Source: a virus. From it: DNA of 64,000 bases. The DNA is taken from the IMG/VR virus record IMGVR_UViG_3300021963_000034, positions 89,556-153,555 of that record; one strand, given 5' to 3'. The notes under the pieces were generated by a model that did no database searches, was not told the DNA's origin, and saw only the letters and a list, made by a program, of their open reading frames with translations. Shown here one piece after another: positions 33,675 to 48,137 of the stretch; within the stretch, counting starts at the first letter, position 1, and the number at the start of each line of letters is the position of its first letter. Position numbers and translations under genes: made by a program.

Positions 33675-34379
33675 ATGAACTATCTAAAGGTTTATTGTAA
33701 TCTTATCAGGAAAGCAGAGAACAGAACTCCTCCTGAAGGTTATACAGAAAATCACCATACATTTCCAAAAAGTATTTTTGGAAAGAATAATAGAATTGTC
33801 GTGCTTACTGGAAGAGAACATTACATAGCACACGCATTACTTGAAAAAGCATTTATAAAGAGATATGGATTGAATAATATAAAAACGCAAAAAATGATAA
33901 AAGCATTTTGGTGTATGAATAATCAAAAGACAAAAAATACATATTTGAATTCTCATTTATATGAAAGTTCAAGAATAAGATTTATTGAAAATATAAAAGG
34001 AGAAAATCACTACTGGTATGGAAAAAAACATTCCCAAAAAACAAGAGAAAGAATGAAAGAAGCACAAAAAGGTGAAAATCATCCAATGTATGGTAAAACT
34101 CATACTGAAGAGACAAGAGAAAAAATGAGTAAATCTCATTTAGGAAAACCATCATCAAAGGGAATGTTGGGTAAAAAACAAACTGAAGAAGCAAAACAAA
34201 AAATAAGAGAAAGTAAAGAAGTCAAATCTTTTTCAGTAATAAGTCCTACTGGTGAAATAATTCATTCTAAAAATACTAAACAATTTTGTAGAGATAATAA
34301 TTTAGATAAAGGGCACTTTTCTCAAGTTTTGAACGGAAAACGACCAATTCATAAAGGATTTCGTCTCTATACTGGATAA
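33675..34379 (+). CDS. HNH homing endonuclease with NUMOD3-type repeats
   Basis: 234 residues. The N-terminal HNH-like region reads GYTENHHTFPKSIFGKNN then LTGREHYIAHALLEKAF. The middle carries NUMOD3-like DNA-binding repeats (NHYWYGKKHSQKTRERMKEA, NHPMYGKTHTEETREKMSKS, GMLGKKQTEEAKQKIRES). The C-terminus FCRDNNLDKGHFSQVLNGKR is a helix-turn-helix/NUMOD1-type end. Free-standing, flanked by unrelated small genes. It would cut phage DNA and promote its own spread. Lys/Ile-rich composition differs from its neighbours. Confidence 0.8.
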   Translation: MNYLKVYCNLIRKAENRTPPEGYTENHHTFPKSIFGKNNRIVVLTGREHYIAHALLEKAFIKRYGLNNIKTQKMIKAFWCMNNQKTKNTYLNSHLYESSRIRFIENIKGENHYWYGKKHSQKTRERMKEAQKGENHPMYGKTHTEETREKMSKSHLGKPSSKGMLGKKQTEEAKQKIRESKEVKSFSVISPTGEIIHSKNTKQFCRDNNLDKGHFSQVLNGKRPIHKGFRLYTG

Positions 34380-36403: not shown

Positions 36404-37123
36404 ATGAAAGACCCTAACAGGTTTTATACTTACGCATACCTGCGAGAAGATAGAACACCTTACTATGTTGGTAAAGGTGAAGGAAGAAGATTGTATAAAA
36501 AAGGAAAGTGTGAAGTTAAACCTCCAAAAGATAAATCAAGAGTAATCTTTTTAAAAGAAAATCTAACAGAAGAAGAAGCATTTAAGCACGAAATCTATAT
36601 GATTGATGTGCTTGGTAGAAAAGATGTTGGAACTGGAATATTAAGAAATAGAACTAATGGTGGTGATGGATTAAGTGGATATGTTCCCACACCAGAAACT
36701 ATTCTAAAATTAAAAAATAGAGAGTGTAGTGAAAAAACAAGAGAAAAAATAAGAAAATCAAACAAAAAAGTTTGGGAAAATGAAGAATTAAGAAAAAGAA
36801 TGAGTGATATGAAGAAAGGAATACCTATTCCAGAAGAAAGAAAGAAAAAGATTTCTCTGGGGCATATGGGTAAAGTTGTGAGTGAAGAAACAAAACAAAA
36901 ATTGAGAGAGTATAATGTAAAATATTTGTATGAAATAAAAGACACACAAGGGAACATTTACACAACAGATAATCTCAATTATTTCTGTAAAATGAATGGA
37001 CTTGATACTGCTGCGATGCAGAGAGTTTGTTATGGAAAACAAAAATCACACACTCCAAAAAGAAAAGATAGAGTTCCTAATGTAGTGGGGTGGACGGTTC
37101 GCATACTGGAACATATCACTTGA
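36404..37123 (+). CDS. GIY-YIG homing endonuclease with NUMOD3-type repeats
   Basis: 239 residues. The GIY-YIG nuclease module has RFYTYAYLRE then YYVGKGEGRR, with the downstream catalytic Glu region EAFKHEIYMIDVLG. A linker GGDGLSGYVPTPET and NUMOD3-like segments (RECSEKTREKIRKSNKK, GIPIPEERKKKISLGHMGK, SEETKQKLREYN) follow, then a C-terminal helix-turn-helix. Similar architecture to segD/I-TevI-like free-standing enzymes. Very Lys-rich compared with its neighbours, as expected of a mobile gene. Confidence 0.85.
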   Translation: MKDPNRFYTYAYLREDRTPYYVGKGEGRRLYKKGKCEVKPPKDKSRVIFLKENLTEEEAFKHEIYMIDVLGRKDVGTGILRNRTNGGDGLSGYVPTPETILKLKNRECSEKTREKIRKSNKKVWENEELRKRMSDMKKGIPIPEERKKKISLGHMGKVVSEETKQKLREYNVKYLYEIKDTQGNIYTTDNLNYFCKMNGLDTAAMQRVCYGKQKSHTPKRKDRVPNVVGWTVRILEHIT

Positions 37124-42238: not shown

Positions 42239-42293
42239 GACACTTTAAAAACTGTCACATGATCCTGCCATTGAGCAGGATTTTTGCTATTCT
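42239..42293 (+). promoter_or_regulatory. Operon boundary unit opening the helicase island
   Basis: Stem-loop GACACTT-TAAA-AACTGTC at 42239-42256. Strong terminator ATCCTGC (42262-42268) / GCAGGAT (42275-42281) plus TTTT. -10 TATTCT at 42288-42293, 21 bases before the helicase start. Confidence 0.75.
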
Positions 42294-42314
42294 ACTTTCA
42301 TTGATTCCTACATC

Positions 42315-43535
42315 ATGGTTCTTTTTCGCCCACATCAAAATGAGTGTTTGGATCAAACCAAGATCCATTCTAAAGGCATTATCTGTGCTGCCACAGGTAC
42401 AGGCAAAACTCTTGTAGGTATTGGTGATACGATTCGTGAGTTTCTAAAAGAAACACCACAAACTGTTGTGGTTGTTGCTCCGCGACTTTTGCTAGCAAAT
42501 CAATTGTGTTCTGAGTATCTTGAGCATATCACTAATGCTTCTGTGTTTCATGTTCATTCAGGAGAAACACACCACTTTTCTTCTACAAAACCTGATGTTT
42601 TGTATAAGTGGTGGTTTCATACTAAGACTCATAAACTAATCTTTACCACCTATCATTCTCTTCATCGAGTGGTGGAATCAGGTATCAAAGTAGATACAAT
42701 TCACTTTGATGAAGCACATAATTCTGTGCAGAAGAACTTTTATCCTGCAACAGAACATTTCAGTCAGAAAGCAGATCGTTGCTACTTCTATACTGCAACA
42801 CCTAAGTATTCTTCAACACCAAAGAAACCTGGGATGAACAATACTCAAGTTTATGGTAACATCATTGCAAATGTTCCTGCTCCACGAATGGTGCGAGAAG
42901 GATACATTATTCCTCCTAAGATTGTTGCCAAGCAAGTATCTTTGGACAGCACTAATGTGTTTGAGCGTGACTGCAATCATCTACTAGAGAGTATTGATGA
43001 GGCAAATGTTTCTAAAGTTCTTGTTTGTGCCAAAGCAACCAAACAAATCACTAATCTGATCTCTCAAACTGGTTTCTGTCAAGAACTAGAGGATCGTGGA
43101 TATTCTTGGATGGTGATTACATCAAAGACTGGTGCAATTATTGATGGTAAAAAAGTAAATCGTGAAGATTTCTTTGATACTCTTCACAAATGGAGTGTTG
43201 ATGACTCTAAAAAGTTTGTTCTTCTCCATTATTCTATTCTTTCTGAAGGTATCAATGTATCTGGACTTGAAGCGGTAATTTTTATGCGATCTATGGACGC
43301 GATAGGAGTGTGCCAAACTATTGGGCGAGTTGTGCGACTCCATCATAAGGATTCTGCACGTCTTCGCTCTGGAGACTTGACACCTGGAAAGTTGGAAGAC
43401 TATCATAAGTCCTATGGTCTTGTGATCATTCCAACTTTCAACTCCGTGGGAATCTCTACAGTAAAGAAAATCCAAAACGTCGTTGACACTGTGTTTCAAC
43501 AAGGCGAACCTTGCATCTCTACTATTAAACGCTGA
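42315..43535 (+). CDS. SF2 DEAH-box helicase (restriction-type)
   Basis: 406 residues. FRPHQNECLD is a Q-like motif, CAATGTGKT (about 24-32) Walker A, HFDEAHN (about 131-136) motif II, TATPK (about 160) motif III, and QTIGRVVRLHHKD (about 333) motif VI. Its compact size and motifs resemble the helicase part of type I/III restriction subunits more than replicative helicases; T4 UvsW is about 100 residues longer. Only two bases separate it from the nuclease-like gene that follows, so the two products probably work together. Confidence 0.85.
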   Translation: MVLFRPHQNECLDQTKIHSKGIICAATGTGKTLVGIGDTIREFLKETPQTVVVVAPRLLLANQLCSEYLEHITNASVFHVHSGETHHFSSTKPDVLYKWWFHTKTHKLIFTTYHSLHRVVESGIKVDTIHFDEAHNSVQKNFYPATEHFSQKADRCYFYTATPKYSSTPKKPGMNNTQVYGNIIANVPAPRMVREGYIIPPKIVAKQVSLDSTNVFERDCNHLLESIDEANVSKVLVCAKATKQITNLISQTGFCQELEDRGYSWMVITSKTGAIIDGKKVNREDFFDTLHKWSVDDSKKFVLLHYSILSEGINVSGLEAVIFMRSMDAIGVCQTIGRVVRLHHKDSARLRSGDLTPGKLEDYHKSYGLVIIPTFNSVGISTVKKIQNVVDTVFQQGEPCISTIKR

Positions 43536-43537
43536 TC

Positions 43538-44050
43538 ATGATTGACTTCAGAACTTTTGAACTGAATCGTCTGTCTAAACTTTTGTATAGTCTTCGTGAT
43601 TATACATCAAACAATTTACGCTTTCCAAAAGCAGGAGAACTTGTAGAAATTGCCTATGATGTCTATAGTAAAGGACAACTCAATCGCGTTAATCTTCCTG
43701 GTGTAGATTTGATTGGAACTGATGGTCACACTTATGAATCTAAGGTGACTCAGTTCAAGAATAAATCACAAATGGCAGTGCGCGATGTCATTCTTAAGAA
43801 CAGTCGTGCAAGTAGTTCTGTCAACGAAAAACTTGCAGACTTCTTTATTTTCACTGACATCAAACTTGGAAAAGCATGTTGCGTTCCTTCTAGTTTGATC
43901 TATAATGTGAAGTTCACGGGTGCTGTTCTTACAGGACATTGTGATCCTCATCCAGAATTCTTTTTTCTTGATAGTTATGCCAAAAAGTACAAAACAGACT
44001 ACTTCGCAGAAGCAGAAAAGTTCGACCACACCTACGTCGAAAGTTTCTGA
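43538..44050 (+). CDS. PD-(D/E)XK-like nuclease, putative
   Basis: 170 residues. LPGVDLIGTDGHTYESKVTQ gives D57...E67-x-K69, with E34/E37 upstream in KAGELVEIAY; this E...D...ExK spacing is typical of restriction-endonuclease-fold nucleases. The following basic stretch FKNKSQMAVRDVILKNSR could contact DNA. It sits two bases after the helicase gene. Alternative: a non-catalytic REase-fold specificity protein. Confidence 0.55.
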   Translation: MIDFRTFELNRLSKLLYSLRDYTSNNLRFPKAGELVEIAYDVYSKGQLNRVNLPGVDLIGTDGHTYESKVTQFKNKSQMAVRDVILKNSRASSSVNEKLADFFIFTDIKLGKACCVPSSLIYNVKFTGAVLTGHCDPHPEFFFLDSYAKKYKTDYFAEAEKFDHTYVESF

Positions 44051-44213
44051 AGGATTTATAACTCAAGATAATTATGCTGTAGTGCCCTGGGGAAAAAGAT
44101 TTGTCATTATTTACAATGGAGAACAACTTACTGATGTAAGCACAAAACTCCAAGCAGAGAGGTTCATCAAACAGCACCGTGACAGTCCTCAAACTGGCAC
44201 AGTGTTTGTTTGA
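43977..44213 (+). CDS. Small protein, basic N-terminus
   Basis: 78 residues. PKSTKQTTSQKQKSSTTPTS is a low-complexity basic start, then DNYAVVPWGKRFVIIYNGEQ and LQAERFIKQHRDSPQTG form a small beta/helix unit. It overlaps the nuclease-like gene by 74 bases, the longest overlap in the region; a later, non-ATG start cannot be excluded. Confidence 0.5.
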   Translation: MPKSTKQTTSQKQKSSTTPTSKVSEGFITQDNYAVVPWGKRFVIIYNGEQLTDVSTKLQAERFIKQHRDSPQTGTVFV

Positions 44214-44229
44214 TGGACCTTTTTTGATC

Positions 44230-44235
44230 TATAGT
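44230..44235 (+). promoter_or_regulatory. -10 box TATAGT
   Basis: Lies 22 bases before the ATG at 44258, the spacing used throughout the early-type operons. No boundary stem-loop is seen here. Confidence 0.45.
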
Positions 44236-44257
44236 TACTTTGTTGTCAATCAATCAC

Positions 44258-46540
44258 ATGACCAACCTCGCAAACGACATCCTCATCTGGAATCGAATGG
44301 TATCTCATGCGATTCCATCGCATAAGAAGGGTGTTTTGTATTTGAATCAAGAAATCAAGGATATTGCTGAACAGTATCCTTGTGGATTTTATCAATTCAC
44401 AAAACTCAGTGCTTTTCTTAAAAAAGAACACAAGTGCGGTCAGACAGAAAAATATGCTGCTGATCGAGTTCATGAACAGCGCACTGCATCTGAACGCGAA
44501 GATTATTTGATTGTTGGTTGGATTCCTTCTGACCTTGCTAAGAATAAGTCTGAAGATCAACGTATTCTTCTTGAACTTCACAAACAGAAGAAATGCACCC
44601 TTGCTACAATCCTTGAATCTAGGACTTCAAAAGAGTGGGCAATTTTTCCTGAAAATAATCCCGAAGAAGTTTGGCGCGATTATCTTGGTAATAACGTCAA
44701 AAAGTTGGATCTTGGTCTGACTATTTGGCAACTTGAGGCAATGGATAATATCTTCTCTTTCCTTACGGAAAATAAGAGAAAAATCATGGCAGAACTTGCT
44801 GCGCGATTTGGTAAGACTCTTGAATATCTTGCCATGTTTCTTGCAGTTAAGCACAAGGTCATGGTTGTTGGAACTTATTATCTAACTGCTCTTACCTCTT
44901 TCAAAAAAGAAGTGCATCGTTACAATGAGTTTTCCAATTTTATTATTCTAGAACTCAATTCTGACACTTTCCAAGCAGACTTTAATCAAGGTCTGAAAGA
45001 AAATAAGAAGATTGTTGTTCTTGCTTCTCTCTGTGGCAATAAGGAAGTTGACCACACTGTGCGTAATCAAAATGCACAGTTTATTGAAACTTTTACTGAC
45101 AAAATTACTGTCATTGATGAAGCAGATTATGGAGCACACACTAAGAGTTGTGTACCCTTTGTCAATCGCATTGGTCACGGCGCACCTGTGATTCTTACCA
45201 CAGGAACCAATAGCGAACGTGCAAAAGGTGAGCACGATGACGTTGATGCTTTCTTCAAGATTACTTATCTTGACATGCTGATGAAAGCAGGTACAAAGGC
45301 AAAGATTAAGAATGATATTGTTAAGCAATTCAAGCGAGCATTTGAATATGAAAAGTGTCTGGCAAAGGTTAAATTTTATCGCTATGATTGGAGTCGTTTT
45401 GTTTCCAGTCTTACCGAACATGAAATGAAGTTCAATCCTTCATTCTCTAAAGCATCTGGGAGTGTCAAAAAAAATCAAGGATTCTGGACCGGACTTTATA
45501 AGTCATTTGTTGGCAGCAGTTCTATCATGGATGCCAATGATTACAGTCTCGCTAACTGTATTGAAGGTGATGCTAAGTCTGTCATTCAGTTTGTTAGTAT
45601 GGAAAACAAACAAATGAAACATCTTGAATCTATTGCGAAGGCAATTCTTGGAGAGTTTTATGATGTTCATATTATCAATGGTGATGTTGTTAAGGGTGAA
45701 GATGCTGAACAATTTGTAAATGATAAGATTCGCATTGCCGAACAAAATAACAAACAAGTATGGATCATCGCGTCTCAAATGTGTCAGCGGTCCTTCAGTG
45801 TTCCCGAGATCAATGTTGTTCTTCTCACTTATGATAACGGAGATGCTGGCGCTACCGTTCAGAAAATGAGTCGTGCTCTGACTGCTGGTAACAGCGAAAA
45901 AGTCGGTCACATTATCTCGATTTCGATTGATGGCACTAGGGACGACAAGATTTCTCCAATGATTCTGGATGCTGCACGACAAGTTGCAGACCATGAGGAT
46001 ATTGATATTCTCTCTGCTCTTCGCAAAGTCATCAAAACTCTTCCTATCTTTGAGATGGGTGAGGATGGATACAACATTCAACTGGAGGCAGACGATTATT
46101 CTAAGGAGATCTTTTCTTCCAGCAGTTCTCATCGGATTGTCATCAATAATGATCGTCTGATGTATGAAGGTTGTCTTGATTTCATTGATTTTGATGCTTC
46201 TACCGCAGAAAAAATGAAAGCAGTATCTGATTTCAAAAAGGGCAAAACTAACCTTGAACCATTGAACAAATCAAAGGGCAAACTGACTTCTGAGGAAAAT
46301 CAACTCATTGCTCAGCGACGCAACAAACTTACAAACATTCTTGATCGCACTTCCTATTGCATCAAAGAAGTTCGCAAGAACAAGGGTAAGATCAGTTACC
46401 AATCTTTTGTTGATATTCTCAACACAAACCGTTTTGTTGCTGATTCTATTGGTGTGACCGCTCAGGAGTTCGATATGTTGGTTCAAGATCGTTATATTGA
46501 TCTTTCTCTGTTCTCCATGTACGTTGAGTGTGACAGTTGA
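44258..46540 (+). CDS. Large SF2 DEAD-box helicase (restriction-associated type)
   Basis: 760 residues. After a 165-residue N-terminal domain, LTIWQLEAMDNI is a Q-like motif, MAELAARFGKTLEYLA (about 181-187) an ARFGKT-type Walker A, VIDEADYGAHT (about 285) motif II, and LTTGTNSERA (about 313) motif III; IASQMCQRSFSVPEINVVLL and GATVQKMSRAL lie in the second RecA domain. The ARFGKT/DEAD form occurs in helicases linked to restriction-like systems. The C-terminal 250 residues are unique. The ATG at 44258 is chosen over upstream TTG by the -10 spacing. Confidence 0.75.
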   Translation: MTNLANDILIWNRMVSHAIPSHKKGVLYLNQEIKDIAEQYPCGFYQFTKLSAFLKKEHKCGQTEKYAADRVHEQRTASEREDYLIVGWIPSDLAKNKSEDQRILLELHKQKKCTLATILESRTSKEWAIFPENNPEEVWRDYLGNNVKKLDLGLTIWQLEAMDNIFSFLTENKRKIMAELAARFGKTLEYLAMFLAVKHKVMVVGTYYLTALTSFKKEVHRYNEFSNFIILELNSDTFQADFNQGLKENKKIVVLASLCGNKEVDHTVRNQNAQFIETFTDKITVIDEADYGAHTKSCVPFVNRIGHGAPVILTTGTNSERAKGEHDDVDAFFKITYLDMLMKAGTKAKIKNDIVKQFKRAFEYEKCLAKVKFYRYDWSRFVSSLTEHEMKFNPSFSKASGSVKKNQGFWTGLYKSFVGSSSIMDANDYSLANCIEGDAKSVIQFVSMENKQMKHLESIAKAILGEFYDVHIINGDVVKGEDAEQFVNDKIRIAEQNNKQVWIIASQMCQRSFSVPEINVVLLTYDNGDAGATVQKMSRALTAGNSEKVGHIISISIDGTRDDKISPMILDAARQVADHEDIDILSALRKVIKTLPIFEMGEDGYNIQLEADDYSKEIFSSSSSHRIVINNDRLMYEGCLDFIDFDASTAEKMKAVSDFKKGKTNLEPLNKSKGKLTSEENQLIAQRRNKLTNILDRTSYCIKEVRKNKGKISYQSFVDILNTNRFVADSIGVTAQEFDMLVQDRYIDLSLFSMYVECDS

Positions 46541-46588
46541 GTAGGTGACACATCATGTCTCAGGTTTCGATCTGAGGCATGATATTCT
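46533..46588 (+). promoter_or_regulatory. Boundary unit: terminator hairpin and -10 box
   Basis: A degenerate boundary motif (GACAGTTGAG) overlaps the helicase stop. Hairpin arms CATGTCTCAG (46554-46563) and CTGAGGCATG (46572-46581). -10 TATTCT at 46583-46588 lies 21 bases before the start at 46610. It splits the island into two transcription units. Confidence 0.65.
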
Positions 46589-46609
46589 TTTTTAGTAATC
46601 AACTTCATC

Positions 46610-47494
46610 ATGACTGCCCTCACTACAGAACAATTCAAAGATTACTTTCAAATCAAAGGTAATACAGTCATTCTTTCTCCACAGGTTGCAATGATTGCAA
46701 GTCTTTGTGGGTATGGCGATTTTGATTATCAACCACCATCTAAAGATCAAACCACAGTATCATCCACTCAGTATGACACTGTTTTGATTGATGTTGTAGA
46801 TAAAGACAAGTTTCCAGGTTTTGCTGGTGGGATGCTTCATTCATTTCGATACTTGACTTATGCACTCGACTTCTTGGGTGGCAATGGGACTTTGATTGGC
46901 AAATTTCCATCATTGCTACTCAATAAGGCAATAAATTTTCCAAACTCCGCACATCTCAATTCCAAGGGTCATACAGAATCAATACACCTTTTTGAAGATC
47001 ACTTTTTTATAAAGATTGTAAAAAATACCAGTAACAGAAAGACTACAGTTTTCTATGAAAATGGAAATGAGGTAGAAGTTCAGACTAAGTACCCTATTCT
47101 TCATCACTACAATCAAGAATACTATGATTATCTCCGTAGCGTAGACTTGACAACATCATGTGCCCGAACCACTATTGACGGTAAGGGTGATAAAGTAGCA
47201 GAACAACTTGCTATTCGATCAAAACGAACTGATTTCGATAAAGTTTTGTTTGTTCCCTCCAACGGAAACAAACCTAAAGCATATACTTTTGATGAGGTAA
47301 AAGACAAAAACAGCGGTGGTGATGCTTTCTTTGCGGAATCTGCAGAGCAGCGCGACCAGTACATTAAAATCCTTCAAAATCCTAAAGTTGTAGATCTGAT
47401 CAAGGAAATGTGCTATAATAACTATACTAGCATGAAACTAGATCATAAAAAGTACATCTTCAATGAGCGCATCTTCTCCTTCGCAAATGCTTAA
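46610..47494 (+). CDS. Degenerate N6-adenine-methylase-like / target-recognition protein
   Basis: 294 residues. YDTVLIDVVDKDKF followed by SFRYLTYALDFLGGNGTLIG has the layout of the NPPY strand and following helix-strand of Eco57I/type I adenine methylases, but the catalytic NPP[YF] is replaced and no SAM-binding FxGxG is present. The C-terminal half, ending FFAESAEQRDQYIKILQNPK and a final FNERIF, resembles methylase target-recognition ends. It may be a catalytically dead specificity or anti-restriction factor. The methylase relation is inferred from pattern, not search. Confidence 0.45.
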   Translation: MTALTTEQFKDYFQIKGNTVILSPQVAMIASLCGYGDFDYQPPSKDQTTVSSTQYDTVLIDVVDKDKFPGFAGGMLHSFRYLTYALDFLGGNGTLIGKFPSLLLNKAINFPNSAHLNSKGHTESIHLFEDHFFIKIVKNTSNRKTTVFYENGNEVEVQTKYPILHHYNQEYYDYLRSVDLTTSCARTTIDGKGDKVAEQLAIRSKRTDFDKVLFVPSNGNKPKAYTFDEVKDKNSGGDAFFAESAEQRDQYIKILQNPKVVDLIKEMCYNNYTSMKLDHKKYIFNERIFSFANA

Positions 47495-48137
47495 TCCTCT
47501 TCTGAATTTGTTTGTCTCCAGTGATCTTGATGTATCTAATGCTAATGTAAAAGATTTCATTGTTCAACCATGCACAATGAGAGAAATCAAAGAGTTTGTT
47601 GTGCATTGGCATTACTCTCATAATCTTAGAGGTATGATGTGTTCTCATGCCTTCAAGATGACATATCAAGATTCAATCATTGGTGCCATGATTTATGGTA
47701 GACCAGCGATGGCAAACGCATGGAAAAAATATGCGGATGAACAAGACGATTTGTTAGAACTTCGTAGACTTTGTTGTATTGATAATACTCCAAGAAATAC
47801 AGAGTCTTATTTTATTGGTAAGACTTTGCGATGGTTGAAAAAGAATACTAATCTTAAAGTTATTGTATCATATGCAGATCCTCATTATGGACATGCGGGT
47901 ACAATTTATAAAGCATCAAACTTTGAATATCGAGGACAAACTTCTTCAGGAAAGGTAATTTCATACAAAGGAAGACTCTTTCATGATAAGTGTATTCGTG
48001 ATGGAAAGAAAAAAGATGAGAATGGTAATCAAATACTTGATAAGTATGCTATTGAATTGAGAGAAGCATTAAAAACTGGAGAGGCGCAATGGATTGAAAC
48101 TCCAGGTAAGCACATTTATGTTTATGAACTGCGGTGA
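47463..48137 (+). CDS. Mom-like DNA adenine-modification acyltransferase-fold protein
   Basis: 224 residues. LELRRLCCIDNTPRNTESYF (98-117), then VSYADPHYGHAGTIYKASNF (135-154) and EYRGQTSSG are the hallmark segments of the phage Mu Mom family (GNAT-like fold), which converts adenine in DNA to a carbamoylmethyl form and blocks many restriction enzymes. The N-terminal part (HWHYSHNLRGMM, SIIGAMIYGRPAM) also fits. Starts at 47463 or the in-frame ATG 47487; both lie inside the preceding gene, implying coupling. Likely protects phage DNA. Confidence 0.8.
   Translation: MSASSPSQMLNPLLNLFVSSDLDVSNANVKDFIVQPCTMREIKEFVVHWHYSHNLRGMMCSHAFKMTYQDSIIGAMIYGRPAMANAWKKYADEQDDLLELRRLCCIDNTPRNTESYFIGKTLRWLKKNTNLKVIVSYADPHYGHAGTIYKASNFEYRGQTSSGKVISYKGRLFHDKCIRDGKKKDENGNQILDKYAIELREALKTGEAQWIETPGKHIYVYELR

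What the first reader, a model, noticed from the sequence alone, without database searches (positions are those of the whole stretch)
42239..48137. Helicase/nuclease/methylase-like/Mom-like island that may be a phage modification or interference system
Between two boundary units lie, in order: an SF2 DEAH helicase, a PD-(D/E)XK-like nuclease two bases later, a small basic protein, a 760-residue DEAD helicase with the ARFGKT Walker A form, a methylase-like protein lacking catalytic motifs, and a Mom-like DNA modifier overlapping it. The combination looks like parts of a restriction-modification system with the classical methyltransferase replaced by Mom-type adenine modification. Possible roles: self-protection of phage DNA, attack on competing phages, or host-DNA degradation. 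I know of no described system with this exact gene set, but could not search.
Basis: partly seen in the sequence, partly recalled or inferred. Interest (0 to 1): 0.85.

Follow-up and report, generated by a model that had tools for sequence, protein, structure and literature searches.

The report
Phage restriction-like cassette marked by Mom
A virus of cyanobacteria carries a three-gene cassette that looks like a restriction-modification system whose DNA methylase has lost its catalytic signatures but kept its DNA-reading part, while a different DNA-marking enzyme (Mom) appears to have taken over the chemistry; if so, the self-mark of such a system can be exchanged in nature.

Summary
The six genes are real but are not one system. 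The first helicase is UvsW, a core gene of T4-like cyanophages; the PD-(D/E)XK-motif protein behind it follows uvsW in all 19 viral loci found, most of which lack the rest. The actual unit is 44258-48137: hel2 (SF2 helicase) - mt (methylase-like) - Mom. hel2 belongs to a phage family (61 clusters here) that is nearly always followed by, or fused to, an adenine methylase; one clade (9 clusters, support 98) instead carries mt plus Mom (8) or a Dam methylase (1). mt folds like M.TaqI but lacks the SAM loop and NPPY/F, while sharing the methylases' C-terminal, recognition-like region. mt and Mom are exchanged as a pair: the window's hel2 is 80% identical to its nearest relative's, but mt 39% and Mom 29%. 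Best reading: a restriction-modification-like cassette in which a dead methylase reads sequence, Mom acylation marks self, and hel2 attacks unmarked DNA. hel2 relatives carry a T5orf172 (GIY-YIG superfamily) domain; in the window protein this is only suggestive. No activity was shown. Mom paired with nucleases was predicted before; replacement of a methylase by dead methylase plus Mom appears new.

The parts
44258..46540 (+). hel2: SF2 helicase/translocase, 760 aa (alternative TTG start at 44240); proposed restriction motor
   Evidence: Family alignment with intact SF2 motifs; Foldseek SF2 matches from a low-confidence model; downstream or fused methylases in relatives
44384..44668 (+). hel2 N-terminal domain, GIY-YIG/T5orf172-like pattern (GFY .. 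KCGQT .. R .. H .. EW); nuclease role inferred
   Evidence: T5orf172 above Pfam cut-off in relatives L116, L120, L123, L124; collinear but not significant for the window clade
44789..44818 (+). hel2 motif I (AELAARFGKT)
   Evidence: Invariant or nearly so in the family
45116..45127 (+). hel2 motif II (DEAD)
   Evidence: Invariant in the family
46552..46583 (+). Terminator-like hairpin between hel2 and mt (14-bp stem, T-rich tail)
   Evidence: z -3.5
46610..47494 (+). mt: TaqI-fold N6-adenine methylase relative without catalytic motifs; proposed sequence reader
   Evidence: AlphaFold pLDDT 86; M.TaqI top PDB matches; profile link to family methylases; motif loss
46790..46801 (+). Position in mt equivalent to the NPPY/F catalytic tetrapeptide (here DVVD)
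   Evidence: Alignment to family methylases by eye
47042..47494 (+). C-terminal, recognition-like region of mt shared with the family methylases
   Evidence: hhalign alignment
47463..48137 (+). Mom-family DNA modification protein, 224 aa
   Evidence: PF25680 126 bits, phrog_1384; residues shared with Mu Mom
42315..43535 (+). UvsW helicase: neighbour, not part of the cassette
43538..44050 (+). PD-(D/E)XK-motif protein, uvsW-associated: neighbour, not part of the cassette
43977..44213 (+). Small basic ORF of the uvsW neighbourhood (overlaps the preceding gene)
   Evidence: phrog_33194

Best explanation
hel2, mt and Mom form a phage-encoded, ATP-dependent, restriction-modification-like cassette. 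hel2 is the restriction side: an SF2 DNA translocase with an N-terminal GIY-YIG-like domain. mt is a former N6-adenine methylase of the TaqI/Eco57I type that lost its SAM loop and NPPY/F but kept its C-terminal recognition region, so it most likely supplies sequence recognition to hel2, to Mom, or to both. Mom acylates adenines of phage DNA and replaces methylation as the self-mark. During infection, unmarked host or rival-phage DNA would be recognised through mt and cut or remodelled by hel2. Shown here: the gene set and its recurrence, the methylase fold of mt without catalytic motifs, descent of hel2 within a methylase-linked family, and joint exchange of mt with Mom. Inferred: nuclease activity, recognition by mt, modification by Mom, and the biological target.
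For: (1) Of 61 hel2 clusters, 42 have a family methylase downstream (35 also with a short SAM-binding stub protein), 5 have the stub (two of them with the methylase fused into hel2, and a divergent or short methylase-like ORF in the other three), 8 have mt+Mom, 1 has mt+Dam; of the 5 scored none, L045 carries a fused methylase, L063, L090 and L105 end at the contig edge, and L058 is a real exception. No cluster has both a downstream family methylase and Mom. (2) mt-linked hel2 form one clade (SH-aLRT 98), sister L121 with NPPF methylase and stub. (3) mt: M.TaqI fold; profile match to family methylases P 1.2e-4 including the C-terminal region, controls P 0.067 or worse; no NPP[YFW] in 11 of 11. 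(4) mt and Mom swap together: window vs L006 hel2 80%, mt 39%, Mom 29%; L006's mt (53-56%) and Mom (88-93%) match L041/L042/L097/L101, whose hel2 is 59-62% identical to L006's. (5) mt is constrained: L041-L097 dN 0.085, dS 0.65. (6) In L008 mt+Mom sits behind a different nuclease-like ORF and SF2 helicase. (7) T5orf172 domains in hel2 relatives.
Against: The window hel2 N-terminus has no direct Pfam hit; nuclease activity is uncertain. The methylase-to-mt+Mom change is a single clade, not many independent events. About seven other family methylases also have an altered NPPY site (NFPF, NYPY, APPF, NPNF, NPAH, NPWY) without any Mom, so loss of the motif does not always come with Mom. The Dam gene of L040 also sits alone at the same site in other cyanophages, so that case may be positional. 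A second, divergent Mom stands alone in the same record. A terminator-like hairpin separates hel2 from mt in the window. No PADLOC model matches hel2, mt or Mom.
Confidence: 0.58

Rival explanations
1. Protection only: Mom, perhaps targeted by mt, marks phage DNA against host restriction; hel2 helps by moving or opening DNA and does not restrict anything.
For: Mom of phage Mu is an anti-restriction modification and works without linked nucleases; a lone second Mom exists in this record; mt and Mom travel as a pair; the window hel2 has no proven nuclease domain.
Against: hel2 is conserved in order with mt and Mom and its family is coupled or fused to methylases like restriction motors; relatives carry T5orf172 domains; in L008 the hel2 place is taken by a nuclease-like ORF plus another SF2 helicase.
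Confidence: 0.22
2. hel2 with methylase or mt is a DNA repair, recombination or replication module of phages; Mom is an unrelated neighbour placed in a gene-exchange hotspot.
For: The site next to uvsW exchanges modification genes freely, including Dam and a beta-class methylase without hel2; a role in recombination has been proposed for phage T5orf172 proteins (PMC7824862).
Against: mt+Mom exchange as a unit and the subtypes of mt and Mom match; Mom or a Mom relative in 8 of 9 mt clusters and in none of the methylase-linked clusters; L029 is in a different genomic context, next to a DNA ligase-like ORF, with the same three genes.
Confidence: 0.13
3. mt is still an active methyltransferase with unusual motifs, or completes an active site with another protein.
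For: Methylase fold retained and the gene is under constraint; in the wider family a separate SAM-binding stub protein exists.
Against: SAM-loop glycines and NPPY/F both absent; no stub at mt loci and none found in the window record (no positive control).
Confidence: 0.07

Closest known systems
Jumbo-phage Mom domains fused to REase-fold nucleases (PMC7824862)
   Same: Mom proposed as the protecting modification and a linked nuclease as the restriction component, predicted to attack host or superinfecting phage DNA
   Different: There the nuclease domain is fused to Mom; here an SF2 helicase of a methylase-linked family and a dead methylase are involved, and the methylase-to-Mom change can be placed on a tree
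Type ISP restriction enzymes (PMC4666363 abstract)
   Same: Nuclease-like domain, SF2 motor, methylase fold and recognition region; three hel2 relatives (L045, L109, L124) are fused single chains
   Different: Separate genes, GIY-YIG-like rather than Mrr N-terminus, methylase dead, Mom added
CglI/NgoAVII systems (PMC4267653 abstract)
   Same: Restriction-modification with a separately encoded DEAD-family helicase/ATPase
   Different: Active methylase, separate R endonuclease, no Mom
S-CAM7 isolate 0809CC03 hel2-methylase locus (MT586120, L002)
   Same: hel2 family followed by a gamma-class methylase in a cultured T4-like cyanophage
   Different: Methylase keeps DPAMGGG and NPPY; hel2 is split into two ORFs; no mt, no Mom
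Phage Mu Mom
   Same: Same protein family with shared conserved residues
   Different: Mu has com-mom without a linked helicase or methylase relative

Membership tests
Restriction-modification system (general) | Linked restriction-like and modification-like genes | tested here: met
   hel2-mt-Mom recurrence and methylase-linked family
Restriction-modification system (general) | Cleavage of unmodified DNA and protection by the paired modification | not testable with these tools
   needs biochemistry
Type ISP | Single chain with Mrr nuclease, SF2 motor, active methylase, recognition domain | tested here: not met
   separate genes, no Mrr hit in hel2, methylase motifs absent
Type III | Res subunit with PD-(D/E)XK nuclease plus active Mod methylase | tested here: not met
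   ResIII match of hel2 below cut-off; no active Mod; mt is TaqI-class
Gamma-class N6-adenine methylase (TaqI/Eco57I) | Methylase fold with C-terminal recognition region | tested here: met
Gamma-class N6-adenine methylase (TaqI/Eco57I) | SAM loop (motif I) and catalytic NPPY/F | tested here: not met
   absent in all 11 mt for NPPY/F; glycine-rich loop replaced in the alignment
Mom (PF25680) | Sequence family above curated cut-off | tested here: met
   126 bits versus 27.1
Mom (PF25680) | Acylation of adenine N6 in DNA | not testable with these tools
   needs mass spectrometry
T5orf172 (GIY-YIG superfamily) nuclease | Pfam model above cut-off at the hel2 N-terminus | tested here: inconclusive
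   met in relatives L116, L120, L123, L124; no hit in the window protein, motif collinear only
UvsW (gene 42315-43535) | Orthology to the cyanophage UvsW-type helicase | tested here: met
   full-length matches in 418 cyanophage records, up to 58% identity; phrog_16
PD-(D/E)XK nuclease (gene 43538-44050) | Nuclease fold | tested here: inconclusive
   D57, E67-x-K69 and E37 invariant; no Pfam or PDB-sequence match; fold not predicted
Known defence systems (PADLOC) | Match to a PADLOC model | tested here: not met
   none for hel2, mt or Mom

The most novel reading that the evidence does not exclude
An ATP-dependent restriction system in which a methylase has been reduced to a pure sequence reader and adenine acylation by Mom has replaced methylation as the self/non-self mark, so that recognition and marking chemistry, normally in one enzyme, are split and the chemistry is exchangeable (canonical Mom, divergent Mom, perhaps Dam).
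Probability: 0.4. Interest if true: 0.85.

Novelty: new variant of a known kind. Interest (0 to 1): 0.66.

Why it matters
If true, a restriction-modification-like system has replaced its methyl mark by a bulky acyl mark while keeping the methylase body as a reader. That would show that recognition and marking chemistry are separable, give a route to Mom specificities, and suggest how lytic cyanophages attack host or rival DNA while protecting their own. Relatives with intact methylases, including one in a cultured cyanophage (S-CAM7 0809CC03), offer a matched comparison that makes the idea testable.

Tried and rejected
Six-gene island: rejected, uvsW-nuc and hel2-mt-Mom are separable. Dam as a clean functional substitute for Mom in L040: kept only as a possibility, because Dam sits alone at the same site in relatives. 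Direct family annotation of mt, nuc and hel2: nothing above cut-off. PDB-sequence searches with hel2, mt and nuc profiles: nothing meaningful. DNA-level search in phage records: no match. Cellular relatives of hel2: none by one motif-based scan of 84,980 species genomes (limited sensitivity). A first profile comparison of mt with only two methylases was weak; with ten mt and eight methylases it became significant. The first mt search with a divergent alignment could not run; a later one found no mt locus without hel2; mt in L008 is behind another helicase. A search with the L008 helicase found only its own contig. hel2 structure prediction was poor (pLDDT 66), so only the SF2 assignment is used. 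Three papers on Mom and base-modification systems were not held.
Full report
What the window is. The window is part of a 153,555-base IMG/VR virus record of T4-like cyanophage character: its uvsW gene has its matches in Synechococcus and Prochlorococcus phages and a phage-type ferredoxin gene is nearby.

The observation. All six ORFs are present, but they fall into two groups. The 406-residue DEAH helicase is the UvsW orthologue, with matches in 418 phage records. The 170-residue protein two bases downstream has an invariant E37, D57, E67-x-K69 pattern of PD-(D/E)XK type but no Pfam or PDB-sequence match. It lies directly behind uvsW in all 19 viral loci found and in phage S-SM1, mostly without hel2, mt or Mom. 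The small basic ORF belongs to the same neighbourhood.

The real unit. hel2 (44258-46540), mt (46610-47494) and Mom (47463-48137) recur in this order in other viral contigs. A scan with a family alignment gave 79 loci; with those already held they reduce to 61 clusters at 90% identity. Forty-two have a family methylase downstream, usually followed by a short SAM-binding stub protein. Five more were scored by the stub alone: in L109 and L124 the methylase is fused into the hel2 ORF, L073 and L119 have short NPPY ORFs, and L108 has a divergent methylase-like ORF. Of five scored none, L045 is a 1255-residue fusion with a methylase, three end at a contig edge, and L058 is a real exception with a shortened hel2 and no methylase. 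Eight clusters have mt+Mom and one has mt+Dam. No cluster has both a downstream family methylase and Mom.

Identity of mt. AlphaFold gives a confident model (pLDDT 86, pTM 0.82) whose best PDB matches are M.TaqI structures (prob 1.00, E down to 2.9e-8), followed by M.BseCI, CamA and BrxX among others. A profile of ten mt proteins matches one of eight family methylases with P 1.2e-4 over 178 columns, including the C-terminal recognition region; unrelated profiles give 0.067 or worse and the reversed methylase profile 0.31. No mt (0 of 11) has NPP[YFW]; 57 of 63 methylases do, and the glycine-rich SAM loop is replaced in mt. mt loci have no stub. mt evolves under constraint (L041 versus L097: dN 0.085, dS 0.65), so it is kept rather than decaying.

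A caution on the methylases. Six family methylases, and the L108 protein, have altered NPPY sites (NFPF, NYPY, APPF, NPNF, NPAH, NPWY) and no Mom nearby. The methylase body may therefore be useful without catalysis more widely, and loss of the motif does not by itself predict Mom.

Evolution. On a tree of 57 hel2 proteins the mt-linked ones form one clade (SH-aLRT 98). Its sister L121 has an NPPF methylase and a stub; S-CAM7 comes next. The simplest reading is that the methylase died once and Mom was added. Within the clade the pair mt+Mom moves together: window and L006 share 80% in hel2 but 39% in mt and 29% in Mom, whereas L006's mt and Mom match L041, L042, L097 and L101 (53-56% and 88-93%), whose hel2 is only 59-62% identical to L006's. 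In L008 the pair sits behind another nuclease-like ORF (weak Mrr_cat_2 match) and another SF2 helicase. This is what one expects of a matched specificity-plus-marking module, though it does not prove the mechanism.

hel2. Helicase motifs are intact, and a low-confidence model still finds SF2 translocases. In four relatives the N-terminus is a T5orf172 domain (GIY-YIG superfamily) above the Pfam cut-off. The window clade keeps a collinear pattern (P 0.01, not significant) but has no direct hit, so nuclease activity is plausible by descent and unproven.

Mom. PF25680 at 126 bits. The alignment with Mu Mom keeps H58, Y59, E108, R111, S124, D149 and Y159. From memory, some of these (H48 and D139 in the shorter numbering) matter in Mu Mom; the paper was not held, so this was not checked. 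A second, divergent Mom lies alone elsewhere in the same record.

Mechanism. I infer that mt reads sequence, Mom marks phage adenines, and hel2 acts on unmarked DNA. The main rival is that Mom, possibly helped by mt, only protects phage DNA. The terminator-like hairpin between hel2 and mt means the window's copy may not be a single transcript.

The site. In related cyanophages the stretch between uvsW and the phrog_1987 gene holds alternative DNA-modification genes: Mom in the window and L008, a Dam-type methylase alone in L009, L011, L014 and L016, a beta-class-like methylase in L007. This is why the Dam of L040 may be positional rather than a true substitute for Mom.

Prior art. Iyer and colleagues predicted Mom plus REase-fold nuclease as restriction-like pairs in jumbo phages (PMC7824862). 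Two small examples were seen here: a restriction-endonuclease-like ORF overlapping Mom in DSL-LC03 (L003) and in L026. Type ISP and CglI-type systems give precedents for a motor with a methylase (abstracts). In the open papers I could search I did not find a dead methylase paired with Mom in a helicase-containing cassette.

Limits. No activity was measured; the mt+Mom clade is one origin; absence from cellular genomes rests on one motif scan; several contigs are metagenomic fragments.

Noticed in passing
L126:7092-7733 (G000:C1, outside the window): A second, divergent Mom gene in the same phage record, next to a homing-endonuclease-like ORF and without hel2 or mt.
   Followed up: partly
window 46552-46583: Strong terminator-like hairpin between hel2 and mt; other mt loci have gaps of -18 to +15 bases instead.
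   Followed up: partly
L053-L055, L066-L068, L073-L107 and others: hel2 is recurrently split into two ORFs between its two RecA-like domains (about 317 + 428 residues); in L106 the halves are 3.8 kb apart with three methylases between them.
   Followed up: no
L007-L016, downstream of uvsW: The stretch between uvsW and the phrog_1987 gene is a variable site holding alternative DNA-modification genes (Mom, Dam, a beta-class-like methylase).
   Followed up: partly
L068, L086, L098, L106, L107: Several tandem family methylases in one locus, possibly an expandable set of specificities.
   Followed up: no
L056, L060, L077, L083, L084, L108, L002:21252-22205: Family methylases with altered NPPY sites but no Mom nearby: possibly further methylase bodies kept as readers.
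   Followed up: partly
L003:6472-7642 and L026:5436-6654: Restriction-endonuclease-like ORF overlapping Mom by 38 bases: a minimal nuclease-Mom pair.
   Followed up: partly
window 33675-34379 and 36404-37123: Homing-endonuclease-like ORFs (HNH-like and GIY-YIG-like with repeated NUMOD-type motifs), judged by eye from the translations.
   Followed up: no
L002 (S-CAM7 0809CC03): Of several S-CAM7 records with uvsW hits only this one gave a hel2 hit, suggesting recent gain or loss.
   Followed up: no
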